A stretch of 20,069 nt of DNA, taken from a virus. The translations under genes were made by a program, and so were the position numbers. The notes beneath the pieces were generated by a model, which did no database searches, was not told the origin of the DNA, and saw nothing but the letters and a program-made list of their open reading frames with translations. Location of the stretch: the IMG/VR virus record IMGVR_UViG_3300043468_000690, positions 1-20,069 of that record, one strand, 5' to 3'. Numbering within the stretch: position 1 is the first letter of the stretch; each line of letters begins with the position of its first letter. Shown piece after piece: positions 67 to 12,225 of the stretch.

Positions 67-141
67 GGGGGATTAGTGCTAATGGGAACACGCGGGCTTT
101 GCAAGCCTGAGTTAGGAGTTCGATCCTCCTATCCTCCACCA
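67..141 (+). tRNA. tRNA-Ala (anticodon TGC)
   Basis: A full cloverleaf: a 7-bp acceptor stem (GGGGGAT with ATCCTCC) including the G3-U70 wobble that marks alanine tRNAs, a D-arm, an anticodon stem CGGGC/GCCTG with loop TTTGCAA, T-arm AGGAG-TTCGATC-CTCCT, discriminator A and encoded CCA. It opens the array in this window. Its final A is also the first base of the ribosome binding site of the next protein gene. Confidence 0.95.
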
Positions 142-152
142 GGAGACATATA

Positions 153-395
153 ATGTGGCGAAATAGTTTAGGCGTATATACTGTAGCAACTGAGTTTATA
201 CCGTGGTTTCCAGAAACCAAAAAAGAATTTAAACCACTAGAGATTAAGCGAGTATACTATGAAGATACCAAAACTAAAACCGAGAAATCCGCTAGTAGCC
301 TTAGCACTGAAACGCAAGGCGGGGTCACACAAGAAGACCAACAAACAACTACGCCAGCAGTTGAACCGGCAACTGGAACTATAACTCAATGGTAG
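153..395 (+). CDS. Small phage protein of unknown function, ending inside a tRNA
   Basis: 80 residues, with ATG 6 bases after a clear AGGAGA site that begins at the CCA end of tRNA-Ala. The N-terminal half is mixed and aromatic (WRNSLGVYTV, IPWFPETKKEF). The C-terminal half is a low-complexity Ser/Thr/Gln-rich tail, probably disordered. No family recognised. The last 21 bases overlap the following tRNA-Lys, and the TAG stop lies in that tRNA's D-arm region (393-395). Cleavage at the tRNA 5' end would therefore leave a message with no stop codon. The good ribosome binding site and the spacing that fits the tRNA-protein alternation support a real gene, although function is unknown. Confidence 0.65.
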   Translation: MWRNSLGVYTVATEFIPWFPETKKEFKPLEIKRVYYEDTKTKTEKSASSLSTETQGGVTQEDQQTTTPAVEPATGTITQW

Positions 396-449
396 AGTAA
401 TCGGCTTTTAACCGATAAGTTCTGGGTTCGAGTCCCAGTGGTTCCACCA
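375..449 (+). tRNA. tRNA-Lys (anticodon TTT)
   Basis: Acceptor stem GGAACTA/TGGTTCC (one wobble), anticodon stem ATCGG/CCGAT with loop CTTTTAA, T-arm CTGGG-TTCGAGT-CCCAG, A73 and encoded CCA. It starts 21 bases before the end of the upstream reading frame. Confidence 0.95.
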
Positions 450-528
450 TATAAAAGTGCATTAGCAATCGCGATCTTTACCTAGGGCGGTGACCACCAC
501 TGCGGAGATACCTAGTGCACTTCTATAT
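450..528 (+). ncRNA. Structured spacer RNA between two tRNAs (not a canonical tRNA)
   Basis: The whole gap between tRNA-Lys and the next tRNA can fold. Bases 450-453 plus 455-461 (TATA, AAGTGCA) pair with 516-522 plus 524-527 (TGCACTT, TATA), around one A-C mismatch. Bases 482-486 (CTAGG) pair with 511-515 (CCTAG). Bases 487-492 (GCGGTG) pair with 498-503 (CACTGC) around a 5-base loop. No T-loop consensus, CCA or proper anticodon arm is present, so it is not an ordinary tRNA. It could be a processing guide, a decayed tRNA or a small RNA released when its neighbours are processed. Confidence 0.45.
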
Positions 529-629
529 GGCCCCGTAGCTTAACTGGTTAAAGAACCGAGCTTATACCTCGGCATAGCGCTGTCTAGATAAGGCAGAGTG
601 TGGGGGTTCGAGTCCCTCCGGGGCTACCA
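529..629 (+). tRNA. tRNA with anticodon TAT (probably Ile) and an oversized variable arm
   Basis: Acceptor GGCCCCG/CGGGGCT, T8 A9, D-loop with A14 and G18 G19, anticodon stem CCGAG/CTCGG with loop CTTATAC (anticodon TAT, reading AUA), T-arm GGGGG-TTCGAGT-CCCTC, A73 and CCA. The variable region is 29 bases (573-601) and contains a 5-bp hairpin, 580-584 with 592-596. That is far longer than the 4-5 bases normal for isoleucine tRNAs and longer than usual class II arms. The identity is therefore uncertain: an Ile tRNA with an insertion, or a class II (Leu/Tyr/Ser-type) body with an altered anticodon. Confidence 0.75.
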
Positions 630-633
630 AATT

Positions 634-725
634 GGATAGTTGGCCGAGAGGTCTAAGGCAGCGGTTTGCTAAACCGTCCTCGGATGAAAGTCTGAGCATA
701 GGTTCGAATCCTATACTATCCGCCA
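634..725 (+). tRNA. tRNA-Ser (anticodon GCT)
   Basis: Acceptor GGATAGT/ACTATCC, serine-type D-arm, anticodon stem GCGGT/ACCGT with loop TTGCTAA, long class II variable arm, T-loop TTCGAAT, discriminator G73 as expected for serine, and encoded CCA. Confidence 0.95.
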
Positions 726-740
726 CTACTAGGAGATTAC

Positions 741-1058
741 ATGGATCCGTATGTACAAAAAATAGAGCAGTACAGTATGCTCTTACAAAAGATTGCTGAA
801 AAGGCTGCTAAACTAAAGCGCGGCGACAGTGTAAGCTGGAACAGCAGTGGTGGCCGTGCTCGTGGCAAGATTACCAAAGTAATCACTAGTGGAAGCGAAG
901 CTATACCGGGCAGTAGTTTTACTATTACTGGTACGGAAGACGATCCTGGCACACTTATTCGTGTGTATCGTCCTGATGACAGTGGCAAGTATAAACCTAC
1001 AGATACTATTGTAGGCCACAAAATGAGCACATTAACTAAGATTGAAGCACTGGACTAA
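741..1058 (+). CDS. DUF2945-like (HVA1/TUDOR-type) small protein
   Basis: 105 residues, ATG 6 bases after AGGAG. After an N-terminal helix of about 28 residues, the stretch GDSVSWNSSGGRARGKI is the signature opening of DUF2945 (hypervirulence-associated TUDOR-like) domains, which are small beta-barrels. The rest (GTLIRVYRPDDSGKYKPT, then VGHKMSTLTKIEAL) fits the family's remaining strands. Family members occur in bacteria and phages and their biochemical role is not established. A TUDOR-like fold suggests nucleic acid or protein binding, but that is inference. It is followed 2 bases later by a Cys-rich protein gene, probably translationally coupled. Confidence 0.75.
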   Translation: MDPYVQKIEQYSMLLQKIAEKAAKLKRGDSVSWNSSGGRARGKITKVITSGSEAIPGSSFTITGTEDDPGTLIRVYRPDDSGKYKPTDTIVGHKMSTLTKIEALD

Positions 1059-1060
1059 AT

Positions 1061-1276
1061 ATGCCATGTTATAAATGCAGCAACGGCAAGTACAAATACG
1101 GTGAACGCGGCCGTTGTCAGTTTGACACGCTTGGTGCGTGCGAAGCAGCAGAACGAGCTATTCATGCACGGCAAAACCAACCAAAAAAGGCTGCTAAAGT
1201 AGAGCGCGGCTGTGGCGGTTGTGGCCGTGGATGCGACTGCCACGAGTGTCGTAAAAACAGAATTAAAAGTACATAG
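1061..1276 (+). CDS. Cysteine-rich small protein, probable metal binder
   Basis: 71 residues. The start ATG lies 2 bases after the previous stop with no strong ribosome binding site, suggesting coupling. The protein has an N-terminal CxxC pair (C3, C6), two further cysteines around 19 and 27, a basic middle, and a C-terminal cluster of Gly-Cys repeats (ERGCGGCGRGCDCHECRK). The cysteine density in a phage intracellular protein suggests zinc or other metal coordination; no named family is recognised. The N-terminal half resembles small proteins repeatedly found in phage tRNA regions, but function is unknown. Confidence 0.7.
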   Translation: MPCYKCSNGKYKYGERGRCQFDTLGACEAAERAIHARQNQPKKAAKVERGCGGCGRGCDCHECRKNRIKST

Positions 1277-1350
1277 CCCCCGATTTTTCTATAGTATACG
1301 GGGTCAGCAGTCCGAGGTTAAGGCTGGCTAAATATTCCTCGGGCCTTATC
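1277..1350 (+). promoter_or_regulatory. Folded leader upstream of the 1373 gene, with two competing helices
   Basis: A first stem pairs CCCCG (1278-1282) with CGGGG (1299-1303). Downstream, CCGAGG (1312-1317) can pair with CCTCGG (1337-1342), while TAAGGC (1319-1324) can pair with GCCTTA (1343-1348). The two helices interleave, so they could alternate or form a pseudoknot. The region ends about 12 bases before the AGGAGA ribosome binding site of the next gene. It is not recognised as a known riboswitch. Confidence 0.4.
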
Positions 1351-1372
1351 ACACAACACACAGGAGATCATT

Positions 1373-1600
1373 ATGAATCCATTTGAAATTCGCGCAGAAC
1401 TACTAAAAACTGCGGAAGAATACCTTAAACAACAACACGAACTGAATACTGAGTTTGCAAAGCGCACCTTTGATGCACTAGTGGCACAAGGTGAAAAAGT
1501 ACAAGCTGACTGGAAAGAGTATATGCCCAAGATGTATACCATTGAAGAAGTGGTAGATCAGGCTAAAAAGCTTTACGGCTTTGTAAATAATGCTAAGTGA
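1373..1600 (+). CDS. Small helical phage protein, paralogue of the 1784-2023 product
   Basis: 75 residues, ATG 6 bases after AGGAGA. Predicted mostly alpha-helical and charged. It is clearly related to the product at 1784-2023: both read FEIRAELLKTAEEYL / PDLRSELLETAQEYL near the start and EYMPKMYTIEEVVDQAKKL / EFMPPMYTMTDVMRLAKEL near the end, with the same length between. The shared E(Y/F)MPxMYT motif is the most distinctive feature. The two genes are tandem duplicates separated by one tiny gene. No function can be assigned. Confidence 0.8.
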   Translation: MNPFEIRAELLKTAEEYLKQQHELNTEFAKRTFDALVAQGEKVQADWKEYMPKMYTIEEVVDQAKKLYGFVNNAK

Positions 1601-1745
1601 TTTAATGCAGCGGCTTCGAGACTATTTTGAGCCGTACACACTTCAGGAGTTTATTGAAGAGTACGGCCCTGCAGACCATCACGAAGTCGAACGCCTAGAA
1701 AAACTCTGGGAACGTCTGCACAATAATCGTCAGTTTTGGTTCTAG
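1590..1745 (+). CDS. Tiny phage protein of unknown function
   Basis: 51 residues, starting within the last 11 bases of the preceding gene in another frame. A second in-frame ATG at 1605 is an alternative start. The product is acidic, aromatic and predicted helical (RLRDYFEPYTLQEFIEEYG, VERLEKLWERL). There is no strong Shine-Dalgarno, so expression probably depends on coupling to the upstream gene. Its composition looks protein-like, with no low-complexity runs, and it fills the gap between the two paralogues exactly. No family recognised. Confidence 0.65.
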   Translation: MLSDLMQRLRDYFEPYTLQEFIEEYGPADHHEVERLEKLWERLHNNRQFWF

Positions 1746-1783
1746 TTGCATAACCCGATAATAACAATAACAAAGAGGGAACC

Positions 1784-2023
1784 ATGGACTTACCAGACCT
1801 ACGCTCAGAGCTGTTAGAAACAGCACAAGAGTATTTAGACGATCATTATAAGATCACAAGAAAATTTGGCGAAGTGGCTTTTGAGGCAGCTGTAAAAGCT
1901 GGCACAAAAACGCTAAATGATCATAAAGAATTTATGCCACCAATGTACACTATGACAGATGTTATGCGACTAGCAAAAGAGCTAGAAACATTTGTTATAA
2001 GTGGAGTAGTACCAGCAAAATAG
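1784..2023 (+). CDS. Small helical phage protein, paralogue of the 1373-1600 product
   Basis: 79 residues, ATG preceded by GAGGGA at good spacing. It aligns along its length with the 1373-1600 protein (shared RxELLxTAxEYL and E(F/Y)MPxMYT blocks), indicating tandem duplication followed by divergence. The TAG stop at 2021-2023 overlaps the first two bases of the initiator tRNA gene, so tRNA 5' processing would break the stop codon. Function unknown. Confidence 0.8.
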   Translation: MDLPDLRSELLETAQEYLDDHYKITRKFGEVAFEAAVKAGTKTLNDHKEFMPPMYTMTDVMRLAKELETFVISGVVPAK

Positions 2024-2100
2024 CGGAGTAGGGAAGCTAGGACGTTCCCGCTAGTCTCATAAGCTAGAGATCGCAGGTTCAAATCCTGCCTCCGCAACCA
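2022..2100 (+). tRNA. Initiator tRNA-fMet (anticodon CAT)
   Basis: The anticodon loop is CTCATAA. Initiator-specific features: position 1 (A) does not pair with A72, unlike elongator tRNAs; the D-stem has purine 11/pyrimidine 24 (G-C); and the 3' end, TTCAAATCC then CCGCAACCA, closely matches bacterial initiator tRNAs. T-arm GCAGG/CCTGC, encoded CCA. The anticodon stem lacks the three consecutive G-C pairs typical of initiators, which is a reservation. It starts inside the stop codon of the preceding gene. Confidence 0.85.
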
Positions 2101-2160
2101 AACCCCACCGCCAGGGACAGTAGCCAGCCTGTCAGAGCGAGAGAGCGTGGGCCTTAAGCA
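2101..2160 (+). other. Short spacer with weak secondary structure
   Basis: No gene is seen between tRNA-fMet and the terminator. CCCAC (2104-2108) can pair with GTGGG (2147-2151), enclosing GACAG/CTGTC (2116-2120 with 2129-2133). This may be a further structured spacer RNA, but the helices are short. Confidence 0.25.
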
Positions 2161-2165
2161 GAGGG

Positions 2166-2210
2166 CTTAAGTTTGCTAGAATATTCTACCAAACTTAAGT
2201 CTTTTATTTT
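2166..2210 (+). terminator. Rho-independent terminator
   Basis: A perfect 10-bp stem, CTTAAGTTTG (2166-2175) with CAAACTTAAG (2190-2199), is followed by TCTTTTATTTT. Between the arms the loop is itself palindromic (TAGAATATTCTA), so the hairpin could extend past a C-C mismatch. It separates the first tRNA/protein group from the next. Confidence 0.8.
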
Positions 2211-2230
2211 AACTAAATTATTAAACTACT

Positions 2231-2464
2231 ATGAGTGACGGCGGAAAAGGAAGTAGCAGAAGACCTATGAGTGTTAGTCAACAAGAATGGGATTCCAGGT
2301 GGGATGCTATTTTTTGTAGAGATGAACCAAATATAATCAAAGCGCAATACGTAATTGACGAGCAGTGCCCTAAGTGTGCAACCGAACTTAAAATTGCTCC
2401 AGGAATTGGGCCGTTCTGCCCCAATAAAGATTGTGACGTAAAAGATAATATCTCGCTAGTGTAA
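2231..2464 (+). CDS. Zinc-ribbon-like small protein
   Basis: 77 residues. The N-terminal part is Ser/Gly/Arg-rich and probably flexible. The C-terminal half has CPKC (about 45-48) and FCPNKDC (about 62-68), a four-cysteine arrangement typical of a zinc ribbon. The ribosome binding site is poor and no promoter was seen after the upstream terminator, so expression level is unclear. The last 15 bases and the TAA stop lie inside tRNA-Trp, so tRNA processing would remove the stop. No named family. Confidence 0.7.
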   Translation: MSDGGKGSSRRPMSVSQQEWDSRWDAIFCRDEPNIIKAQYVIDEQCPKCATELKIAPGIGPFCPNKDCDVKDNISLV

Positions 2465-2523
2465 TGGCAGCATACCAGTCTCCAAAACTGTTGGTCGGGG
2501 TTCGAGTCCCTGGCGGGATGCCA
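2450..2523 (+). tRNA. tRNA-Trp (anticodon CCA)
   Basis: Acceptor ATCTCGC/GCGGGAT with one wobble, anticodon loop CTCCAAA on a CAGT/ACTG stem, T-arm CGGGG-TTCGAGT-CCCTG, G73 as in bacterial Trp tRNAs, and encoded CCA. The 5' end overlaps the preceding gene by 15 bases. Confidence 0.93.
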
Positions 2524-2533
2524 AAATATTAAT

Positions 2534-2562
2534 TTGAATTTGTTCGCCGAACAGTGTATAAT
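2534..2562 (+). promoter_or_regulatory. Sigma-70 type promoter P1
   Basis: TTGAAT (2534-2539), a 17-base spacer and TATAAT (2557-2562) lie upstream of the gene at 2588. An upstream TTG at 2534, in frame with that gene, is the -35 box itself, which rules it out as the start codon. Confidence 0.85.
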
Positions 2563-2587
2563 ATATCTTTGCACTGTAGGAATAACC

Positions 2588-2803
2588 ATGAAATTGATTA
2601 GCAGAATATCTCCACCGATATTTCTTGTGCCTGCTTATGGTAGAACTTATGCTACCAAAGAAGCAGCGCTACAAGCATGGAATAGTGGCAAGGACTTTCA
2701 AATTTATAGAGGCCCGTATTGTTCTATACGGGACGAAAAAGAACTACACAATATGTCTAGTGGAGTATTTATACAATACGACACTGGAACAGTAGAAGTA
2801 TAG
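2588..2803 (+). CDS. Small phage protein of unknown function
   Basis: 71 residues. The ATG at 2588 was chosen because it follows AGGAA by 5 bases and lies downstream of promoter P1. The protein starts MKLISRISPPIFLVPAYGRT and looks like a small globular fold with beta strands (FQIYRGPYCSI, GVFIQYDTGTVEV). No family recognised. The final base of the TAG stop is the first base of tRNA-Tyr, so RNase P cleavage there would break the stop codon. Confidence 0.75.
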   Translation: MKLISRISPPIFLVPAYGRTYATKEAALQAWNSGKDFQIYRGPYCSIRDEKELHNMSSGVFIQYDTGTVEV

Positions 2804-2896
2804 GGTGTGTTGATGCTACGGAGTGTGCATCCCCGGACTGTAAATCCGGTCCCGCGTTGGTAAACACTGTTGGTTCGACTCCAACCACACCCACCA
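2803..2896 (+). tRNA. tRNA-Tyr (anticodon GTA)
   Basis: Perfect acceptor GGGTGTG/CACACCC, D-stem GATGC/GCATC, anticodon stem CCGGA/TCCGG with loop CTGTAAA, long class II variable arm, T-arm TTGG-TTCGACT-CCAA, A73 and encoded CCA. Confidence 0.95.
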
Positions 2897-2900
2897 ATAT

Positions 2901-2984
2901 GCCCCTGTGGTGGAATGGTAGACACAGGAGACTTAAAATCTCCCGCTTTAGGGCGTGCCAGTTCGACTCTGGCCAGGGGTACCA
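2901..2984 (+). tRNA. tRNA-Leu (anticodon TAA)
   Basis: Acceptor GCCCCTG/CAGGGGT, anticodon stem GGAGA/TCTCC with loop CTTAAAA, class II variable arm, T-arm GCCAG-TTCGACT-CTGGC, A73 and CCA. Confidence 0.95.
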
Positions 2985-2995
2985 AGGAATAGTGT

Positions 2996-3181
2996 ATGAA
3001 AAAACAATCACTAAATGAAATTTTGCTGCAAGTATTGGGCAGTAGAGAAATGGTAGAAACTTGGTGGGCTACACCAAATAAAGCATTTGATATGGAAATA
3101 CCAGACGATCTAATACACAGCAATCGTAAGAATGAAGTAATAAAGTATATACTGGCTCAAGTTAGCGGCGAGTATAGTTAA
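2996..3181 (+). CDS. DUF2384 (MbcA/ParS/Xre-type)-like small protein
   Basis: 61 residues, ATG about 7 bases after AAGGA at the tRNA-Leu CCA end. The region from VLGSREMVETWWATPNKAF to the end resembles the C-terminal domain of MbcA/ParS/Xre antitoxins (DUF2384), which typically have a W-x2-TPN-x-A(L/F) core followed by a helical end. In chromosomal toxin-antitoxin pairs this domain neutralises a RES or ParT-type toxin. No toxin partner is adjacent here, so an orphan antitoxin or a re-used domain is possible. The stop sits 1 base before tRNA-Asp and survives tRNA processing. Confidence 0.6.
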   Translation: MKKQSLNEILLQVLGSREMVETWWATPNKAFDMEIPDDLIHSNRKNEVIKYILAQVSGEYS

Positions 3182-3182
3182 T

Positions 3183-3257
3183 GGCCTAGAAGTGTTCATG
3201 GACGCACGCCAGCCTGTCACGCTGGTAGAAGGGGATCGTTACCCCTCTGGGTCGCCA
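3183..3257 (+). tRNA. tRNA-Asp (anticodon GTC)
   Basis: Acceptor GGCCTAG/CTGGGTC with wobbles, anticodon stem CCAGC/GCTGG with loop CTGTCAC, T-arm AGGGG-ATCGTTA-CCCCT, G73 expected for Asp, and encoded CCA. The T-loop starts with A instead of the near-universal T54. Confidence 0.9.
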
Positions 3258-3271
3258 TACTAAAGTACTAT

Positions 3272-3346
3272 TCCCTAGTAGCTCAGCGGTAGAGCAGCAG
3301 ACTGTTAATCTGTTGGTCCGTGGTTCGATCCCACGCTGGGGAGCCA
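3272..3346 (+). tRNA. tRNA-Asn (anticodon GTT)
   Basis: Acceptor TCCCTAG/CTGGGGA, anticodon stem GCAGA/TCTGT with loop CTGTTAA, T-arm CGTGG-TTCGATC-CCACG, G73 and encoded CCA. Confidence 0.95.
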
Positions 3347-3361
3347 AACATGGAGACAACT

Positions 3362-3517
3362 ATGCTAGTTTATCATGGCCGTAATAAAGATACGTGTGAG
3401 TGGGTTATTAAAATGTTTAAAAATGACCCACTAACAAAAGATAACTTGACAACACAGGCTTGGATAAAGGCGTGTGAAGATTACTTAGAATCCATTGGGG
3501 ATTCGCCAAGTTGGTAA
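3362..3517 (+). CDS. Tiny phage protein of unknown function, ending inside a tRNA
   Basis: 51 residues. The ATG at 3362 follows GGAGA by 6 bases. An in-frame ATG at 3350 would precede that site and is less likely, and anything earlier would fall inside tRNA-Asn. The product is small, charged and probably helical (DTCEWVIKMFKNDPL, AWIKACEDYLESIG). The final 22 bases overlap tRNA-Gln and the TAA stop lies in its D-arm, so 5' maturation of that tRNA would create a stop-less message. No family recognised. Confidence 0.65.
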   Translation: MLVYHGRNKDTCEWVIKMFKNDPLTKDNLTTQAWIKACEDYLESIGDSPSW

Positions 3518-3571
3518 GGCATCGGATTTTGATTCCGACACGCGGTGGTTCGAGTCCATCATCCCCAGCCA
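3496..3571 (+). tRNA. tRNA-Gln (anticodon TTG)
   Basis: Acceptor TGGGGAT/ATCCCCA, anticodon stem TCGGA/TCCGA with loop TTTTGAT, T-arm GGTGG-TTCGAGT-CCATC, G73 and encoded CCA. The weak U1-A72 pair is typical of glutamine tRNAs. Confidence 0.95.
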
Positions 3572-3584
3572 CAAACACACAATT

Positions 3585-4055
3585 ATGCGAAAATTTAATC
3601 TTGAAGAAGTAAAGCAATTTATTGTACAATCTAGTCCTGAAACAAAAATTTATCTTGGCGCTGACAGTGAACGAGTTGTGTACAACAACAAGTGGCATGC
3701 AGACTATACGCTGGCTGTAGTAGTGCACATTGACGGCAAACACGGTTGCAAGATTTTTGGCAATGTAATTCGTGAGCTAGACTACGATCAGCGCAAAGAC
3801 AAGCCTGCACTTAGGTTGATGAATGAAGTGTACAAAGTAGCTGACCTATTCAATGAGCTAAGCGATGTGTTGCAAGATCGACACGTTGAAGTGCACCTTG
3901 ACCTAAACCCTAGCGACCGATACGCTAGTAGTCAAGTAATAAATCAAGCAATTGGTTATATTCGCGGAGTTTGTAATATAGAACCACAAGTTAAACCAGA
4001 AGCATTTGCAGCAACTTACGCAGCCGACAGACTAAAATTTGTATTGAGTAACTAA
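3585..4055 (+). CDS. DUF458/YkuK-like RNase H-fold protein
   Basis: 156 residues. The ATG at 3585 is the first plausible start after tRNA-Gln; upstream codons in frame lie inside the tRNA. The pattern matches the YkuK/DUF458 family, which has a predicted RNase H-like fold: YLGADSER near residue 28, YTLAVVVHIDGKHGCKIFGN as the second strand pair, LRLMNEVYKVADLF as the helix, VEVHLDLNPSDRYASS with acidic residues, then a VKPEAFAATYAADRL end. Acidic residues in the strands could form a metal site, as in RNase H folds. Nuclease activity is inferred, not shown. It is followed 1 base later by another small gene. Confidence 0.8.
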   Translation: MRKFNLEEVKQFIVQSSPETKIYLGADSERVVYNNKWHADYTLAVVVHIDGKHGCKIFGNVIRELDYDQRKDKPALRLMNEVYKVADLFNELSDVLQDRHVEVHLDLNPSDRYASSQVINQAIGYIRGVCNIEPQVKPEAFAATYAADRLKFVLSN

Positions 4056-4056
4056 A

Positions 4057-4275
4057 ATGGAACCGCTAATGAAGAAAAATCGCTTTGATCTTGAGCAAGA
4101 AATTATGGAGTGCTGGAATGTTACCAAGGACATTGAAAACTTCTATTATGCACAAGAAGAAATGGACGAAGATGAGCGCTTGAATTACCTGCTTGGTTTA
4201 CAATCAATTTATGAAGTAAGGTTTAATAAGCTGTGGAAAACTTTTGAGCAGTGCGTTAGCAACAGACAAATCTAA
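4057..4275 (+). CDS. Small acidic helical phage protein
   Basis: 72 residues from ATG 4057. An in-frame ATG at 4069 (giving MKKNRFDLEQEI) has a GGA 7 bases upstream and may be the true start. The protein is acidic, probably a helical hairpin, with RFDLEQEIMECWNVTKDI followed by an acidic linker and IYEVRFNKLWKTFEQC. Related small proteins are common in T4-like phages, but no function is known to me. The stop ends exactly one base before tRNA-Cys, so tRNA processing would leave the stop as the last codon of the message. Confidence 0.75.
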   Translation: MEPLMKKNRFDLEQEIMECWNVTKDIENFYYAQEEMDEDERLNYLLGLQSIYEVRFNKLWKTFEQCVSNRQI

Positions 4276-4352
4276 CTCGGCGTGACCCGAATGGTTAGGG
4301 AGCGGATTGCAAATCCGTTTTATGCAGGTTCAAGTCCCTGTCGTCGAGTCCA
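4276..4352 (+). tRNA. tRNA-Cys (anticodon GCA)
   Basis: Acceptor CTCGGCG/CGTCGAG, anticodon stem GCGGA/TCCGT with loop TTGCAAA, discriminator U73 as required by cysteinyl-tRNA synthetase, and CCA. The T-stem pairs best as GCAGG/CCTGT around an 8-base loop (TTCAAGTC), one base more than the usual 7. Confidence 0.88.
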
Positions 4353-4427
4353 GGATGTATAGCACAGCGGTAGTGCACTTCCTTCATACGGAATAGGCCA
4401 GTAGTTCGAATCTACTTACATCCACCA
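4353..4427 (+). tRNA. tRNA with anticodon CAT (elongator Met or Ile2)
   Basis: Starts directly after the CCA of tRNA-Cys. Acceptor GGATGTA/TACATCC, D-stem GCAC/GTGC, anticodon loop TTCATAC on a TTCC/GGAA stem, T-arm AGTAG-TTCGAAT-CTACT, A73 and CCA. The perfect 1-72 pair excludes an initiator. Whether C34 is modified to lysidine (reading AUA) cannot be told from the sequence. Confidence 0.88.
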
Positions 4428-4429
4428 AT

Positions 4430-4504
4430 AGCCATGTAGCTCAGAGGCAGAGCAATCGGTTGATAACCGATAGGTCGACATTTCGAAACTGTCCATGGCT
4501 ACCA
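4430..4504 (+). tRNA. tRNA-Ile (anticodon GAT)
   Basis: Perfect acceptor AGCCATG/CATGGCT, anticodon stem ATCGG/CCGAT with loop TTGATAA, A73, CCA. The T-stem closing pair 53-61 is U-C instead of the nearly invariant G-C, leaving a 4-bp T-stem (GACA/TGTC). Confidence 0.9.
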
Positions 4505-4509
4505 TATTT

Positions 4510-4584
4510 GCCGGTTTAGCTCAGTGGTAGAGCAACCGCCTTGTAAGCGGTAGGTCGTCAGTTCAAATCCGACAACCGGCACCA
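4510..4584 (+). tRNA. tRNA-Thr (anticodon TGT)
   Basis: Perfect acceptor GCCGGTT/AACCGGC, anticodon stem ACCGC/GCGGT with loop CTTGTAA, T-arm GTCAG-TTCAAAT-CCGAC with one mismatch, A73 and CCA. Its CCA abuts the tmRNA acceptor piece. Confidence 0.93.
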
Positions 4585-4652
4585 GTTTATAGTTGTATGA
4601 AGCCTAGCAAAAGGCGTCTTGGACGTGGGTTCGACTCCCACCTGGTCCACCA
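4585..4652 (+). ncRNA. ssrA: tmRNA acceptor piece (3' domain, encoded first)
   Basis: Contains one strand of the P2 helix, a small GCCT/AGGC hairpin, the CTTGGAC connector typical of tmRNA, T-arm GTGGG-TTCGACT-CCCAC, acceptor strand CTGGTCC, A73 and an encoded CCA. It has no D-arm or anticodon arm and cannot form a complete tRNA alone, which is what exposes the permutation. The 5' boundary is set by the CCA end of tRNA-Thr. Confidence 0.88.
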
Positions 4653-4722
4653 GAAACATATTTGCAGACCGTGCCACTCCTTGTGAAAAGGATCGTACTG
4701 CAGGACGAAGTATGTTTCTGAT
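4653..4722 (+). other. tmRNA intervening segment, expected to be removed
   Basis: Links the CCA end to the acceptor 5' strand. CAGAAACATA (4651-4660, including the last two bases of CCA) pairs perfectly with TATGTTTCTG (4711-4720). Within it TGCAG pairs with CTGCA and TCCTT with AAGGA. Such segments are cut out in known two-piece tmRNAs, leaving two RNAs held by base pairing. Confidence 0.8.
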
Positions 4723-4910
4723 GGGCCAGTCATGGTTTCGACAGGGTGACAAGTAGTAAAGTGGACAACTCGGCAATGCAGAAGCCGTAGGGTTGGGATT
4801 ACCTGGCCGTAGACGCAAACAACGTAAATGCAAACGACGAAAGTTTTGCTTTAGCCGCCTAAACTCGGCTTAGGGTTTGCCCGTTTCCTCGTAACAGAAT
4901 AACGGGCCAC
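4723..4910 (+). ncRNA. ssrA: tmRNA coding piece with proteolysis tag frame
   Basis: Begins with acceptor strand GGGCCAG and the tmRNA D-loop. The tag frame runs from a GCA resume codon at 4830 to TAA at 4860-4862 and encodes ANDESFALAA; with the alanine carried by tmRNA itself the full tag is A-ANDESFALAA. The ALAA end is the ClpXP/ClpAP recognition form seen in proteobacteria, and the AND start matches E. coli. The bases before the resume codon (CGTAAAT) are similar to those in known tmRNAs. Confidence 0.9.
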
Positions 4911-4911
4911 T

Positions 4912-5000
4912 GGAGGGTTAACTAGGCTGGGCCTGGCACTGTTTTGAACACAGATGGACTTGGAAACAGGTTGGAGTTCGATTCTACCATCCCTCCTCCA
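4912..5000 (+). tRNA. Probable tRNA-Ser (anticodon TGA), imperfect T-arm
   Basis: An 89-base class II shape: acceptor GGAGGG/CCCTCC, an anticodon stem CTGT/ACAG with loop TTTGAAC (TGA), a long variable arm, T-loop TTCGATT and a final CCA. Problems are only three of five T-stem pairs, an extra base before the 3' acceptor strand, and U73 instead of the G73 typical of serine tRNAs. It may be a decaying tRNA, an unusual variant or contain a sequencing error. Confidence 0.6.
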
Positions 5001-5028
5001 TTGTTAAATATATTAATACAAGTATATT
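5001..5028 (+). promoter_or_regulatory. Possible weak promoter
   Basis: TTGTTA (5001-5006), a 16-base spacer and TATATT (5023-5028) precede the 33-residue gene at 5075. It matches sigma-70 boxes less well than the other promoters, in a very A/T-rich stretch where chance matches are common. Confidence 0.3.
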
Positions 5029-5074
5029 TACCCATGGAAAAATTATTTTTAGCAGTATCAATTAGGAGAAATTG

Positions 5075-5176
5075 ATGCAATATATACTTCTATTTCCTCC
5101 TAAACAAATAATAAGGTGGTACATAGACGAGTTCGGATTCTTACAGTTAGAGCTAGTTGAAATGCCACAAGATTAA
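5075..5176 (+). CDS. 33-residue phage protein of unknown function
   Basis: Starts at an ATG 6 bases after a perfect AGGAG and ends with TAA one base before tRNA-Gly. The product is MQYILLFPPKQIIRW followed by an acidic, hydrophobic stretch ending EMPQD. It is too short for family assignment. The strong ribosome binding site and the neat fit between RNA genes argue for translation. The stop survives tRNA 5' processing. Confidence 0.6.
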   Translation: MQYILLFPPKQIIRWYIDEFGFLQLELVEMPQD

Positions 5177-5177
5177 T

Positions 5178-5254
5178 GCGTGCGTCGTATAGCCTGGTTA
5201 TTATTGCTGGTTGCCAACCAGTGGACGCGAGTTCGAATCTCGCCGCCCGCACCA
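5178..5254 (+). tRNA. tRNA-Gly (anticodon GCC)
   Basis: Acceptor GCGTGCG/CGCCCGC with a T4-C69 mismatch, anticodon stem GCTGG/CCAGT with loop TTGCCAA, T-arm GCGAG-TTCGAAT-CTCGC, A73 and CCA. The next glycine tRNA has the same 4-69 mismatch. Confidence 0.9.
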
Positions 5255-5255
5255 A

Positions 5256-5329
5256 GCGTGGTTAGTTTAATGGTAAAACAGTAGGCTTCCAACCTTCAGT
5301 TAAGAGTTCGATTCTCTTACCCCGCACCA
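5256..5329 (+). tRNA. tRNA-Gly (anticodon TCC)
   Basis: Acceptor GCGTGGT/ACCCCGC with a T4-C69 mismatch, anticodon loop CTTCCAA, T-arm AAGAG-TTCGATT-CTCTT, A73 and CCA. The anticodon stem has one T-T mismatch. It lies one base after the first Gly tRNA. Confidence 0.9.
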
Positions 5330-5345
5330 CACAGGAACACAAATT

Positions 5346-5798
5346 ATGTTATCTAAAACACTACAAAACTTAAGTAGTGCTCTTGCTGGCGAGAGTACTG
5401 CACACATCAAGTACCGGTACTTTGCAAAAATTGCAAGGGACGAAGGTTACGAAGATATTGCCAAGCATTTTGAGCATACTGCCGATCAAGAAATTAAACA
5501 CGCTTGGGGACATCTAGAGCTGTTAATTGGCAGACCTAGTACACGCGAATGTTTATTAAAGGCTATTGAAGGCGAAACTTACGAATTTACAGAAATGTAT
5601 CCAAGATTCGAAGAAGACGCAGAACAAGAAGGTAACGAATCAGCAATACTAGAAGCTAGGTTACAGGCCGAAGAATCAAAGCAACACGCACAAGAATTTT
5701 CAGAAATGCTCAGCAAGGCAGAAGCAAGATTCGCAGCACTAGCAAAAGTGGAAGAGCGACACGCTAATGCTTATAAGAAAGTATTGGAGTCAATGTAA
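5346..5798 (+). CDS. Rubrerythrin diiron (ferritin-like) domain protein
   Basis: 150 residues, ATG after an AGGAA-type site. Rubrerythrins reduce peroxide using a diiron site in a four-helix bundle. The expected ligands are visible: E16 in helix 1, E49-x2-H52 in helix 2, E77 and E80 followed by the hallmark MYPRFEEDAEQEG in helix 3, and E136-x2-H139 in helix 4. The usual C-terminal rubredoxin domain is absent from this chain but is encoded by the next gene, whose ATG overlaps this stop (TAATG). The pair would rebuild a whole rubrerythrin system. A cytoplasmic peroxide-defence role during infection is likely but inferred. Confidence 0.92.
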   Translation: MLSKTLQNLSSALAGESTAHIKYRYFAKIARDEGYEDIAKHFEHTADQEIKHAWGHLELLIGRPSTRECLLKAIEGETYEFTEMYPRFEEDAEQEGNESAILEARLQAEESKQHAQEFSEMLSKAEARFAALAKVEERHANAYKKVLESM

Positions 5799-5935
5799 TG
5801 GAATATGTGTGCGTAATCTGTGGACATATCCACGACGAACAAATTGAAGGCGACTGGGATTCTTTACCTGATAACTTTGAATGCCCTGAGTGTGGCTGTG
5901 GTAAAGAAGACTACGAAGTGTATTCTTTCGAATAA
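5798..5935 (+). CDS. Rubredoxin-like iron protein, partner of rubrerythrin
   Basis: 45 residues, with the start overlapping the rubrerythrin stop by one base. C5-x2-C8 and C29-x2-C32, each followed by Gly, form the FeS4 knuckles, and the spacing, LPDNFECPECG and the GK(E/D)D end match rubredoxins and the C-terminal domain of rubrerythrin. It would pass electrons to the diiron protein encoded upstream. The usual hydrophobic residue in CGVGK is a cysteine here (CGCGK). It ends one base before tRNA-Val. Confidence 0.9.
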   Translation: MEYVCVICGHIHDEQIEGDWDSLPDNFECPECGCGKEDYEVYSFE

Positions 5936-5936
5936 T

Positions 5937-6011
5937 GCGCGATTAGCTCAGCGGTAGAGCGTCTCCTTTACACGGAGAGGGTCGGCGGTTCAAACCCGTC
6001 ATCGCGTACCA
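5937..6011 (+). tRNA. tRNA-Val (anticodon TAC)
   Basis: Acceptor GCGCGAT/ATCGCGT, anticodon stem TCTCC/GGAGA with loop TTTACAC, T-arm GGCGG-TTCAAAC-CCGTC, A73 and CCA. Confidence 0.95.
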
Positions 6012-6021
6012 AATTATTAAC

Positions 6022-6050
6022 TTGAATTCATATCCCCAAATTGGTATAAT
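6022..6050 (+). promoter_or_regulatory. Sigma-70 type promoter P2 with overlapping inverted repeat
   Basis: TTGAAT (6022-6027), 17 bases, then TATAAT (6045-6050) preceded by TGG (extended -10). CCCCAAAT (6034-6041) and ATTTGGGG (6059-6066) are perfect inverted copies flanking the -10 box, an operator-like layout. It drives the DUF1289 gene. Confidence 0.85.
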
Positions 6051-6066
6051 ATATACTGATTTGGGG
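6034..6066. promoter_or_regulatory. 8-bp inverted repeat around the P2 -10 box, possible operator
   Basis: CCCCAAAT and ATTTGGGG arms are separated by 17 bases containing TATAAT. The left arm lies before the expected transcription start, so the symmetry would act in DNA (repressor or activator site) for P2 transcripts. For read-through transcripts the same hairpin followed by ATTTTTTC could act as a terminator. Confidence 0.5.
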
Positions 6067-6077
6067 ATTTTTTCATT

Positions 6078-6217
6078 ATGGAATCACCATGCGTTAAAAT
6101 CTGCAAGCTAGACCCTAAACTGCAGTATTGTTTAGGATGCAAGCGAACTGTAGAAGAAATACAAAAGTGGACGTACTATACGCCCGAACAGCGACAGAAA
6201 ATCATTAAAGAATTACT

Positions 6218-6227
<10 letters not shown>
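6078..6227 (+). CDS. DUF1289-family small cysteine-rich protein
   Basis: 49 residues. The start MESPCVKICKLDP, then YCLGCKRTVEEIQKW and a C-terminal helix (PEQRQKIIKEL), match DUF1289 proteins, which are small proteobacterial proteins with four conserved cysteines (here C5, C9, C18, C21) likely to bind a metal. Their role is not established. Transcription is from promoter P2 about 25 bases upstream, and there is no strong ribosome binding site. The last 10 bases, with the TAG stop, are positions 1-10 of the next tRNA: the stop is its conserved U8-A9-G10. The family is mainly cellular, suggesting capture from a host. Confidence 0.85.
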
Positions 6228-6295
<68 letters not shown>

Positions 6296-8747: not shown

Positions 8748-9368
8748 ATGGCACGAAAGCGTAGTGAACTTGAACAAGAGCTGATGACTGATGCAAACAT
8801 TGCAAAAGTTATCCGTCTACTAGAACCTAGTGAAGAAGGTGTAAAACCTATTACTAAAAAAGATGCTTGTCAAATTCTTGGCATGGCATATAACACCACG
8901 CGTCTTGCCACTATTATCCAAGAATACAGAGACAGACGTGAGCGTGAACGGCGATTCCGTGCTGAAAAGCGTGGCAAACCTATCACCAAAGACGAGCGCA
9001 GTTATATTATCTCTGAGTACTTGGCAGGTGAACCCGTTGACAGCATTAGCAAAAGTACGTATCGTAGCACAGCTATAATTAAACAAGTACTAGACGAGTC
9101 TAATGTGCCAATTAGGGTGCCTGGCCACAGTTACTTTAAACCACAGCTAATTCCAGATGGTGCAACACGCGACCGATTTGCAGTGGGTGAAGTGGTGTAT
9201 AGTGCCCGTTACGATACCCTGGCTAAGATTACTAGTGAGCAACTTAGTCCTAAGCATGGCTATATCTACAGTCTGTGGTTACGTGGTATCTGGCAACAGA
9301 GTGCATATCAGCCTGCTTATGAATTGGCAAGCCTACAGCACCTAAGAGAACTAGGGGTTGACGTATGA
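8748..9368 (+). CDS. Helix-turn-helix phage protein with C-terminal beta domain
   Basis: 206 residues, ATG after AGGAACAG. The N-terminal half has two HTH-like units: residues 37-60 (KDACQILGMAYNTTRLATII) and about 80-115 (DERSYIISEYLAGEPVDSIS, then STAIIKQVLDES), separated by a very basic helix (RDRRERERRFRAEKRGK). From residue 120 on, a beta-rich domain follows (FAVGEVVYSARYDTLAKIT, YIYSLWLRG), resembling a small SH3-like barrel. This suggests a DNA-binding regulator or processivity factor, but no named family is recognised. It overlaps the next start by 4 bases (ATGA). Confidence 0.75.
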   Translation: MARKRSELEQELMTDANIAKVIRLLEPSEEGVKPITKKDACQILGMAYNTTRLATIIQEYRDRRERERRFRAEKRGKPITKDERSYIISEYLAGEPVDSISKSTYRSTAIIKQVLDESNVPIRVPGHSYFKPQLIPDGATRDRFAVGEVVYSARYDTLAKITSEQLSPKHGYIYSLWLRGIWQQSAYQPAYELASLQHLRELGVDV

Positions 9369-9658
9369 GTGATAATCTACACTACGAAAAAACTATTTAT
9401 CACAACGAAGAAAAGTTTTATCAGCTAAAGCTTACGCTTAGTGAGTTTCGTGATAAGTATTACGTCAACTTGCGTAAATACTTCCAAAGTTATGAAGGCG
9501 ACTTTGTACCCAGTAAAGAAGGCGTATCTATGGAAGCTAGCATGGAAAATATTTACGCACTGCTAGACGGACTATTTGATATAGTCTCAAAAGGTGAGGC
9601 AGAAGAAATTGTGCGGCACTATGCCAACAAAATTTCTGGCTTGAATCCCAGACCCTAA
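9365..9658 (+). CDS. PC4/YdbC-like single-strand DNA-binding domain protein
   Basis: 97 residues, ATGA overlap with the previous gene. The order of elements matches PC4 (transcriptional coactivator p15) domains: a strand-forming opening (FYQLKLTLSEFRDKYYVNLR), then KYFQSYEGDFVPSKEGVSM, equivalent to the PC4 signature of a D/E-G-x2-x-P-x-(K/R)-x-G-(I/V)-(S/T) turn, then a helix (MENIYALLDGLFDI). Bacterial and phage relatives bind single-stranded DNA and cluster with replication genes, as here next to the ligase. Promoter P5 overlaps its 3' end. Confidence 0.65.
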   Translation: MSDNLHYEKTIYHNEEKFYQLKLTLSEFRDKYYVNLRKYFQSYEGDFVPSKEGVSMEASMENIYALLDGLFDIVSKGEAEEIVRHYANKISGLNPRP

Positions 9659-9669
9659 ACTGCTATAAT
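9641..9669 (+). promoter_or_regulatory. Sigma-70 type promoter P5, giving a nearly leaderless ligase mRNA
   Basis: TTGAAT (9641-9646), 17 bases, TATAAT (9664-9669) preceded by TGC (extended -10). The ligase ATG is at 9679, only 9 bases after the box, so transcription starting about 7 bases downstream would leave an RNA leader of 0-3 bases. The promoter lies in the end of the PC4-like gene. Confidence 0.8.
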
Positions 9670-9678
9670 AGTTGTCTT

Positions 9679-10632
9679 ATGAATAAATTGGAACAATTTC
9701 TTAACATCGCAAGTCGGGCTTATTATGCCGGACAACCCATTATTAGTGACGAGCAGTTTGACAAACTCGCCGAGAGCTGCGGCTACTCGGCTGTTGGTGC
9801 ACAGGCTACAGGCTCAACTGAAAAGCATATGTACCAAATGTACTCGCTGCAAAAGTACTATGAAGACGAGGGCAAGCGTCCTCTTGAAGGTTATCAAGAC
9901 CTTAGCATGACAGTAAAGCTTGACGGTGCAGCAATCAGCTTGCTGTATGTCAACGGAGAACTAGTGCGTGCACTTACTCGTGGCGATGGCACAGAAGGCC
10001 AAATTATTACAGACAAGATTCTGGCGCATAAGGGTCTAGTTCCGCACAGTATTCCAGTGACTGGTATCTATCAAATCACTGGTGAGATTGTAGCTCCTAA
10101 ACATATTGAGAATGCTCGCAACTATGCGGCAGGAGCACTAAACCTAAAAGATATTGAAGAATTCAAGACTAGGGCGGTAAGCTTTTTTGCATACGGCATT
10201 CAGCCTAGCCTGTGTCCAAAGTTCGATCAAGATCTAGATATGTTGAGAACATTTGGGTTTAGCGTAATCAGCGATGCGGACCTAGACAAAATTTACCCTT
10301 GCGATGGTATTGTGTTCCGTGTAAACGACAACACAGTTTTTCAAAGCCTTGGGTATACGGCCAAACATCCTCGCGGAGCGTATGCCCGCAAGGAGCGAGC
10401 CGAGCATGTAGAAACCAAACTACTCGATGTAGAGTGGCAAGTTGGTAAAAGCGGTAAGGTTACCCCTGTAGCCATACTTGAGCCTGTTATGATTGGTGAT
10501 GCTGTGGTATCCAGAGCTACACTAAACAACCCAGGTTTTATCGAAATGCTTGATTTGCAGATAGGAGACACGGTGGCCGTAATTCGCAGTGGCGAAATTA
10601 TTCCGTGTATCCTACACAAAGTAGATGCGTAA
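9679..10632 (+). CDS. ligA: NAD-dependent DNA ligase, N-terminal (adenylation + OB) subunit
   Basis: 317 residues, against about 670 for a complete bacterial LigA. Domain Ia is marked by YYAGQPIISDEQFDKL (NMN-binding region). Adenylation motif I is K80-L-D-G with K80 as the nucleotide-accepting lysine, followed by TRGDGTEG (100-107), G-E 135-136 (motif III), FFAYG (169-173), C-D-G-I-V-F-R (208-214, motif IV), and YTAKHPRGAYARKE (226-239, motif V). The OB domain contains VGKSGKVTPVA, EPVMIGDAVVSRATLNN and GDTVAVIRSGEIIP. It ends exactly where the zinc finger would start in LigA; that half is encoded by the next gene. There is no Shine-Dalgarno and the start is nearly leaderless from P5. Confidence 0.95.
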   Translation: MNKLEQFLNIASRAYYAGQPIISDEQFDKLAESCGYSAVGAQATGSTEKHMYQMYSLQKYYEDEGKRPLEGYQDLSMTVKLDGAAISLLYVNGELVRALTRGDGTEGQIITDKILAHKGLVPHSIPVTGIYQITGEIVAPKHIENARNYAAGALNLKDIEEFKTRAVSFFAYGIQPSLCPKFDQDLDMLRTFGFSVISDADLDKIYPCDGIVFRVNDNTVFQSLGYTAKHPRGAYARKERAEHVETKLLDVEWQVGKSGKVTPVAILEPVMIGDAVVSRATLNNPGFIEMLDLQIGDTVAVIRSGEIIPCILHKVDA

Positions 10633-10664
10633 ATTTCCTAGCCTTGGGCAAACGAAATTTTCGC

Positions 10665-10693
10665 TTGTCAACGAGCAGTTAATACTGTATAAT
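10665..10693 (+). promoter_or_regulatory. Sigma-70 type promoter P6, between the two ligase genes
   Basis: TTGTCA (10665-10670), 17 bases, TATAAT (10688-10693), 25 bases before the ATG of the ligase C-terminal gene. A dedicated promoter here argues that the split is functional, not a sequencing error. Confidence 0.85.
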
Positions 10694-10718
10694 ATCTATA
10701 TAAATTAACAAAGCAACT

Positions 10719-11480
10719 ATGAGAATCACAATACCCACTGAGTGCCCTTGCTGTAACTACCCACTAGAACTGGTCAACGATCAGCTCTTCTGTCGTAACA
10801 CAGCCTGTGGAGCGCAGCTTACTAAGAAGGTCGAGCATTTTTGCAAAACCCTTAGTATTAAGGGTATGGGTTCTCGCACAATAGAGAAACTAGGTTTGGG
10901 CGATATAACTGAGTTGTATTATCTAGACTTGGCCGAAGTTACTGAGGCACTTGGTAGTGAGAAAGTAGCCACAAAGTTACTGGATGAAATTGAAAAGAGT
11001 AAACAGGCTGATCTGGCCACGGTTATCAGTTCTTTTTCTATCCCACTAGTGGGTCAAACCGCAAGTAAAAAGTTGTGTGAAGTAGTTACATCTGTAGACG
11101 AGATCAGTTTCGAGACTTGCAAGCAGGCCGGTTTAGGTGATAAAGTTACACAAAATCTACTAAGCTGGCTAGAAACCGATTTCCAAGAGATGAGAGAGTT
11201 CTTGCCTTTCTCGTTTCGTTCCGACAAACCTGTAATTGCAAATACAAACTCAAAAACTATTTGTATTACTGGTAAACTGCATTCTTATAAAACTAAAGCC
11301 GAAGCCTATAAAGCATTAGAGGTGGCAGGCTACAAACCAGTAGAGTCTGTAACTAAAACTACGGACTATTTAGTTGACGAAGAAGATAAAGGTAGTTCAA
11401 AACGTAAAAAAGCCGAGTCTCTCGGTATTACAATCATCACAAATTTAAATACTTTCTTGAAAGAAAATACAAATGACTGA
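10719..11480 (+). CDS. NAD-dependent DNA ligase, C-terminal (zinc finger, HhH, BRCT) subunit
   Basis: 253 residues. A zinc finger with C9-x2-C12-x12-C25-x4-C30 (TECPCCNYPL, LFCRNTACGAQ) matches the LigA Zn domain. Helix-hairpin-helix units follow: SIKGMGSRTIEKL (46-58) and SIPLVGQTASKKL (107-119). A BRCT domain runs from about 178 (SKTICITGKLHSYK) to the end, with the conserved VTKTTDYLV. These are the domains that bind nicked DNA in bacterial ligases and are missing from the upstream 317-residue protein, so the two must associate to form a full enzyme. It overlaps the next gene by 8 bases. Own promoter P6; weak ribosome binding site. Confidence 0.93.
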   Translation: MRITIPTECPCCNYPLELVNDQLFCRNTACGAQLTKKVEHFCKTLSIKGMGSRTIEKLGLGDITELYYLDLAEVTEALGSEKVATKLLDEIEKSKQADLATVISSFSIPLVGQTASKKLCEVVTSVDEISFETCKQAGLGDKVTQNLLSWLETDFQEMREFLPFSFRSDKPVIANTNSKTICITGKLHSYKTKAEAYKALEVAGYKPVESVTKTTDYLVDEEDKGSSKRKKAESLGITIITNLNTFLKENTND

Positions 11481-12225
11481 AAAGACTAAAAAGTGGTCCG
11501 ATGCCGCTGTTGATAAACTAATGAGTATTATTGGTGGCCAGCGTCCCGTTAGCGCTGACACTGTTGAGCGTGCTGCTCAAGAATTGGGCGACGAGTTTAC
11601 TGCTCGTAGCGTTGCCAGCAAGCTGCGTCAACTGGACGTCGAAGTAGCTTCTATGGCTAAGGAAAAGACCAGTGCCTTTACTGAAGACGAAGGTGCTGAA
11701 CTTGCTGAGTTTGTTATCGCTAACAGCGGTAATTTTACTTACAAGCAAATCGCTGAAAACTTTGCCAGTGGCAAGTTCTCGGCTAAGCAAATTCAGGGTA
11801 AGCTGCTTGCTCTTGAACTGACTGGCAGTGTCAAGCCTGCTGAGAAGGTTGAAGTTGCTCGTACTTATACCGATGCAGAAGAAGCAAAGTTTGTTGCTAT
11901 GGCTGAAAGCGGTAGCTTCATTGAAGACATTGCCTCTGCTCTGAATAAGACTGTGGCTAGCGTTCGTGGTAAGGCTCTGAGCCTGACACGCAAGGGACAA
12001 ATCGCTAAGATTCCCGCACAGCGCACCAGCCATGCTAAGGAGCAGGTTGATCCTGTTAGCGCACTTGGCGACAAGATCCACAGCATGACAGTTGCTGAGA
12101 TCGCTAAGGCTGTTGACAAGACTGAGCGTGGTCTTCGTACTCTGCTGACCCGTCGTGGCATTAAAGTTGCCGATTATGACGGTGCTGCTAAGAAGGCCAA
12201 GGCAGAAGCAAAAGCTGCCGCCTAA
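11473..12225 (+). CDS. Protein with four helix-turn-helix/Myb-like repeats and a basic tail
   Basis: 250 residues. Four related HTH units: about 7-55 (KWSDAAVDKLMSIIGG, then FTARSVASKLRQLDVEV), about 66-115 (AFTEDEGAELAEFVI, then YKQIAENFASGKFSAKQIQG), about 129-178 (YTDAEEAKFVAMAESGSF, then NKTVASVRGKALSL) and about 193-233 (HSMTVAEIAKAVDKTERGLR, LLTRRGIKV). Each starts with an aromatic plus T/S-D/E and ends with a recognition-like helix. The tail (AAKKAKAEAKAAA) is Ala/Lys-rich and histone-like. It probably binds DNA at multiple sites, perhaps as a nucleoid protein or regulator. A strong terminator follows. The unit type is shared with the 8330 product. Confidence 0.8.
   Translation: MTEKTKKWSDAAVDKLMSIIGGQRPVSADTVERAAQELGDEFTARSVASKLRQLDVEVASMAKEKTSAFTEDEGAELAEFVIANSGNFTYKQIAENFASGKFSAKQIQGKLLALELTGSVKPAEKVEVARTYTDAEEAKFVAMAESGSFIEDIASALNKTVASVRGKALSLTRKGQIAKIPAQRTSHAKEQVDPVSALGDKIHSMTVAEIAKAVDKTERGLRTLLTRRGIKVADYDGAAKKAKAEAKAAA

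What the first reader, a model, noticed from the sequence alone, without database searches (positions are those of the whole stretch)
9679..11480. NAD-dependent DNA ligase split into two separately transcribed genes
The 317-residue protein ends after the OB fold and the 253-residue protein starts at the zinc finger. There are 86 bases between them with a consensus promoter (P6), so this is a real split, not a frameshift. The halves must assemble, and different promoters could give unequal amounts; the DNA-binding half might have an independent role.
Basis: partly seen in the sequence, partly recalled or inferred. Interest (0 to 1): 0.6.

Follow-up and report, generated by a model that had tools for sequence, protein, structure and literature searches.

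The report
Known two-piece phage DNA ligase
This virus of bacteria makes its DNA-sealing enzyme as two separate proteins, an arrangement already known from phage T5 and its relatives; what looks new is that in some close relatives a selfish DNA-cutting gene has inserted exactly at the join between the two halves.

Summary
ORF A (9679-10632, 317 aa) carries the NAD-binding, adenylation and OB parts of an NAD-dependent DNA ligase; ORF B (10719-11480, 253 aa) carries the zinc finger, HhH and BRCT parts. They lie 86 nt apart, out of frame, with a strong sigma-70-like promoter between them.

The arrangement is known. Phage T5's GenBank record annotates ligA ("subunit A") and ligB ("subunit B"), also with promoters between them. 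The heterodimer of Providencia phage PR1, a T5 relative, is solved on nicked DNA (PDB 9hu3, 9i5i); its chains are the best PDB matches of A and B. All 116 distinct loci checked are split; split A subunits form one clade apart from ten one-chain ligases. The intergenic promoter is conserved in 28 diverged representatives.

Apparently new, though not searched exhaustively: in 8 distinct relatives a GIY-YIG homing endonuclease gene sits at the ligA 3' end. Carriers have altered the otherwise near-invariant GEIIP motif of ligA (7/7 versus 2/73) and often show replaced ligA tails. The junction is thus probably a homing site, which suggests, but does not prove, how the gene was split. Independent roles or unequal amounts of the halves are unsupported.

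The parts
9679..10632 (+). ligA: subunit A (short NAD-binding Ia part, adenylation domain, OB fold), 317 aa
   Evidence: Pfam aden + OB; best PDB match 9hu3 chain A, E=6.6e-70, 9i5i/9hu3 by fold
9916..9927 (+). Motif I K80-L-D-G (AMP-accepting lysine)
   Evidence: invariant in 29 sequences; role from knowledge of the LigA family
10591..10605 (+). GEIIP motif at the end of the OB fold; changed in relatives that carry a GIY-YIG endonuclease gene, candidate homing target
   Evidence: changed in 7/7 distinct carriers vs 2/73 insert-free tails; the window itself has the unchanged motif and no insert
10665..10693 (+). Promoter-like site P6 of ligB, TTGTCA-17-TATAAT
   Evidence: 11/12; same place in 28 representatives under 80% alike, mean 10.1/12 vs 7.5 in shuffles
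10719..11480 (+). ligB: subunit B (zinc finger, HhH, BRCT), 253 aa
   Evidence: best PDB match 9hu3 chain B 'DNA ligase subunit B', E=1.1e-38; AlphaFold2 model pLDDT 85, best fold match 9hu3_B
10743..10808 (+). Four zinc-binding cysteines C9, C12, C25, C30 of subunit B
   Evidence: invariant in 12 and in 29 sequences
9641..9669 (+). Promoter-like site before ligA, TTGAAT-17-TATAAT with TG before the -10
   Evidence: 10/12; less regular in relatives than the ligB site
11473..12225 (+). Next gene, overlapping the end of ligB; in the place of T5 D5 (DNA-binding protein)
   Evidence: position; only a weak HTH match in Pfam

Best explanation
The two genes encode the subunits of a T5-type heterodimeric NAD-dependent DNA ligase. 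Subunit A binds NAD, takes AMP on Lys80 and carries the OB fold; subunit B supplies the zinc finger, HhH and BRCT domains; together they close round nicked DNA and seal it. B has its own strong host-type promoter and may also receive read-through from A. The split is old and fixed in this phage group. Shown here: homology, domain division, conserved motifs, conserved promoter, and one clade of split A subunits. Inferred: pairing of these particular chains (from the PR1 structure), catalysis and relative expression.
For: Domain content; T5 ligA/ligB at the corresponding place with promoters between; PR1 heterodimer on nicked DNA is the best PDB match of both chains by sequence and by fold; split in 116/116 distinct loci; split A rows lie on one side of a branch, support 100/99; promoter conserved; D5-like gene, DnaB-like helicase, primase and DNA polymerase A follow as in T5.
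Against: Nothing found against it. B is only about 36-46% identical to the named homologues, and its Pfam matches are below cut-off. Promoter and read-through rest on sequence alone.
Confidence: 0.96

Rival explanations
1. Added to the above: the ligA/ligB join is a homing site, and the ancestral one-chain ligase was split by insertion of a homing endonuclease gene that was later lost from most lineages.
For: In 8 distinct relatives a GIY-YIG ORF sits in the last codons of ligA, with the original distance to ligB kept behind it in most. At least three diverged types are present. GEIIP is changed in 7/7 carriers vs 2/73. ligA tails are replaced in several carriers (L054/L060, L075/L091, L081/L062), P=0.001 over all. 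Insertions of mobE in Aeh1 nrdA and mobA in T4 gene 60 are known to have split genes (PMC2988022).
Against: The split is family-wide, whereas inserts are seen only in part of the window's clade; T5 and the Vibrio and Aeromonas phages looked at have none at this place. The inserts may have come into a gene that was split already, where an added gene does least harm. L077 shows no tail drop, and carriers are related to each other. No one-chain relative or ancestral endonuclease was found.
Confidence: 0.35
2. The split arose by simple gene fission (a stop plus a new start) and is kept because two chains with separate promoters let the phage tune or stagger the halves; endonuclease inserts came later.
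For: Promoter for B kept in all 28 representatives and annotated in T5 and PR1; PR1 has a terminator between the genes.
Against: No expression data; no terminator in this window. A promoter is needed anyway once other genes can enter the gap.
Confidence: 0.4
3. The subunits act apart: B has a separate DNA-binding role, or A seals nicks alone.
For: None from sequence beyond separate promoters.
Against: A and B occur together in every locus long enough to show both; solved as a heterodimer in PR1.
Confidence: 0.03
4. Artefact: frameshift, assembly error or decaying gene.
For: None.
Against: Same split in 116 distinct loci, conserved motifs and cysteines, conserved promoter.
Confidence: 0.005

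Closest known systems
Phage T5 ligA/ligB (T5.116, T5.117; GenBank AY543070)
   Same: Same two subunits, same order, promoters between and before them, D5, helicase, primase and polymerase genes downstream
   Different: Proteins about 43% (A) and 39% (B) identical; gap 202 nt with two annotated promoters instead of 86 nt with one
Heterodimeric DNA ligase of Providencia phage vB_PreS_PR1 (PDB 9hu3, 9i5i)
   Same: Both chains are the best PDB matches; structure is a heterodimer on nicked DNA
   Different: About 43% and 36% identical; PR1 has an annotated terminator and promoter in a larger gap
One-chain bacterial LigA (E. coli ligA)
   Same: Same domains in the same order; active-site and zinc residues kept
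   Different: One chain of 671 aa; the window's break is at about residue 393-402, and subunit A is shortened
Genes in pieces by homing endonucleases (Aeh1 nrdA/mobE, T4 gene 60/mobA; PMC2988022)
   Same: Endonuclease gene at the join between two pieces of one enzyme, in relatives of the window
   Different: The window itself has no insert; the inserts in relatives are GIY-YIG and lie in the last codons of ligA; that they caused the split is not shown

Membership tests
T5-type two-subunit NAD-dependent DNA ligase | Adenylation + OB on one chain, zinc finger + HhH + BRCT on another | tested here: met
T5-type two-subunit NAD-dependent DNA ligase | ligA and ligB in order in the replication region, before D5, helicase, primase and polymerase genes | tested here: met
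T5-type two-subunit NAD-dependent DNA ligase | Common descent of the split subunits | tested here: met
   Split A rows on one side of a branch, 100/99, in all 200 bootstrap trees; some one-chain rows have long branches
T5-type two-subunit NAD-dependent DNA ligase | The two chains form a heterodimer that seals nicks with NAD | not testable with these tools
NAD-dependent DNA ligase (LigA) | KxDG, RGxG, catalytic E and DG motifs; four zinc cysteines | tested here: met
   Invariant columns
Free-standing GIY-YIG homing endonuclease (inserts in relatives) | GIY-YIG catalytic domain | tested here: met
   PF01541 over cut-off in two of three tested; 22.0 vs 22.6 bits in the L081 type
Free-standing GIY-YIG homing endonuclease (inserts in relatives) | Cuts the insert-free allele and spreads with co-conversion of the flank | tested here: inconclusive
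   Altered motif and replaced ligA tails in carriers; one exception, rows not independent; cleavage not testable
Gene split by a homing endonuclease | Intact one-chain relative and insert at the join | tested here: not met
   No one-chain member found in the clade; only more distant one-chain ligases

The most novel reading that the evidence does not exclude
The heterodimeric ligase arose when a homing endonuclease gene inserted at the OB/zinc-finger linker of a one-chain phage ligase. The endonuclease was later lost from most lineages, leaving a promoter-bearing gap, and the same site is still being invaded, and its target recoded, by diverged GIY-YIG endonucleases in relatives of this phage.
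Probability: 0.35. Interest if true: 0.5.

Novelty: new member of a known kind. Interest (0 to 1): 0.27.

Why it matters
The split ligase is known, so the window only adds a diverged member. What the comparison adds is evidence that the join of a two-subunit enzyme is a probable homing site, with a candidate target that carriers have altered. That makes one route to two-subunit enzymes in phages testable with short DNA substrates.

Tried and rejected
Pfam alone is weak for B; the PDB sequence search settled it. A scan for the T5-type nick motif core RGCGC gives fewer than chance, 30 vs 55, so nothing can be said about programmed nicks in this phage. No paper on the PR1 structure or on endonuclease insertion at this ligase was found in the held library; subscription journals are mostly not held. 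In bacterial genomes only two relatives of A turned up: one in an Aureispira MAG contig with no B seen after it, and one a long one-chain protein. The count of TATAAT in the window alone equals chance; only its fixed position across relatives is informative. Artefact or decay of the gene was rejected.

Full report
Observation. ORF A (9679-10632, 317 aa) and ORF B (10719-11480, 253 aa) are on the + strand, 86 nt apart and in different frames. A matches the adenylation and OB families of NAD-dependent ligase. B matches only weakly in Pfam but clearly matches the C-terminal half of solved LigA chains: 1dgs E=1.1e-16, E. coli 2owo E=2.8e-12 from residue 402 on. A ends at E. coli LigA residue 393, so the break is in the linker between the OB fold and the zinc finger, with no domain lost. 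K80-L-D-G, R101-G102-x-G104, E136 and D209-G210 of A and the four zinc cysteines of B are invariant across relatives.

Already known. The GenBank record of phage T5 annotates ligA and ligB as subunits A and B of NAD-dependent DNA ligase, with two promoters between them and one before ligA. A 2012 paper on a T5-like phage lists DNA ligase as ORF119 and ORF120 (PMC3326045), and a 2019 announcement names subunits A and B (PMC6813398). The PDB holds the heterodimer of Providencia phage PR1 (Demerecviridae) on nicked DNA with the phage nick sequence (9hu3) and with a random sequence (9i5i). Its chains are the best matches of A (6.6e-70) and B (1.1e-38) by sequence, and of both AlphaFold2 models by fold.

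Breadth. In 116 distinct loci from viral contigs (the window's clade, T5 relatives, Vibrio phages) A and B are always separate and in the same order. Gaps are 66-89 nt in most of the window's clade, 202 nt in T5 relatives, and 1134-1374 nt with other genes between in Chester-type Vibrio phages. The few loci lacking one half end at the contig edge. A tree of the A region puts 17 split rows on one side of a branch with support 100/99 against ten one-chain rows, so one fission is enough; several one-chain rows have long branches and the nearest one-chain relative is not resolved.

Promoter. P6 is TTGTCA-17-TATAAT. Among 28 representatives less than 80% alike, 27 have TATAAT and one TATACT starting 30-36 nt before the ligB start, with a TTG-type -35 at 17-18 nt; the mean match is 10.1 of 12 against 7.5 in shuffles. 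No terminator was found between the genes in this window, while PR1 has one annotated. B is therefore expected from its own promoter plus read-through (inference).

The join in relatives. In eight distinct loci of the window's clade (L035, L038, L046, L053/L054, L075, L077, L081, L156) the gap is 810-1047 nt and holds one ORF of 226-299 aa. Of three examples scanned in Pfam, two match GIY-YIG over the cut-off and one just below, with helix-turn-helix or NUMOD-like C-terminal parts. Six of the eight loci carry proteins 65-100% alike; L035 (30-32%) and L081 (18-27% over part) are diverged types. In most, the distance from the endonuclease stop to ligB equals the gap of insert-free relatives (85-87 or 71 nt; 70 in L035 and 54 in L156 are the exceptions), and the ORF's last codons resemble the end of ligA. 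The insertion thus lies in the last codons of ligA, and ligA has regained an end of its own. Relatives of these endonucleases sit beside terminase genes in other phages, so the family moves.

Signs of homing. All 73 distinct insert-free ligA tails have E in the motif G-E-I-I-P; insert-bearing tails have D (2), M (3) or E followed by V (2). Counting any change of E-I, 7 of 7 versus 2 of 73, Fisher P=1.1e-8. The rows are related to each other, so this P value overstates the case, but three different changes occur. Several carriers also show replaced ligA tails: L054 and L060 are 95-100% identical along ligA except 78% in the last 60 nt; L075 and L091 fall from 98-100% to about 80% in the last 240 nt; L081 is about 90% like L062 in the body but 60-70% in the tail. 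Over all carriers the tail drop exceeds that of insert-free pairs (P=0.001), with L077 as an exception. This is what co-conversion round a cut site would leave; cleavage itself was not tested.

Mechanism and limits. The most likely working is that of LigA divided over two chains: A is charged with AMP from NAD and carries the core, B completes the clamp on DNA. For this phage the evidence is homology only. That a homing endonuclease caused the original split is plausible from Aeh1 nrdA and T4 gene 60 (PMC2988022), but no one-chain ancestor or ancestral endonuclease was found, and the inserts could equally be later arrivals in a gene already split.

Verdict. The endonuclease inserts at the join in relatives are the part worth following.

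Noticed in passing
window 4560-4953 (+): Permuted tmRNA gene (ARAGORN tag ANDESFALAA; Rfam tmRNA_permuted 123.5 bits and beta_tmRNA 120.3 bits) inside the tRNA cluster: a phage-borne two-piece tmRNA, hinting at a betaproteobacterial host.
   Followed up: partly
window 67-6295 (+): About 19 tRNA genes; the one at 529-629 is unassigned by ARAGORN with a four-base anticodon call 'tacc'.
   Followed up: no
window 9664-9681: The -10 TATAAT before ligA ends 9 nt before its ATG and no Shine-Dalgarno is seen; a similar short spacing recurs in many relatives, so the ligA message from this promoter may be nearly leaderless.
   Followed up: partly
window 9365-9658 (+): Small protein with a PC4-like (transcriptional coactivator p15) domain directly before ligA.
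   Followed up: no
window, whole: RGCGC, the core of the T5 nick consensus, is rarer than in shuffles (30 vs 55) and uneven between strands.
   Followed up: no
L010 4969-6344 (Vibrio phage Chester): Three genes, one annotated DprA-like, lie between ligA and ligB, so the gap takes in unrelated genes.
   Followed up: no
L202 4001-5952: A contig in an Aureispira MAG holds a subunit A 54% identical to the window's with no subunit B seen after it; probably viral sequence binned with the MAG.
   Followed up: no
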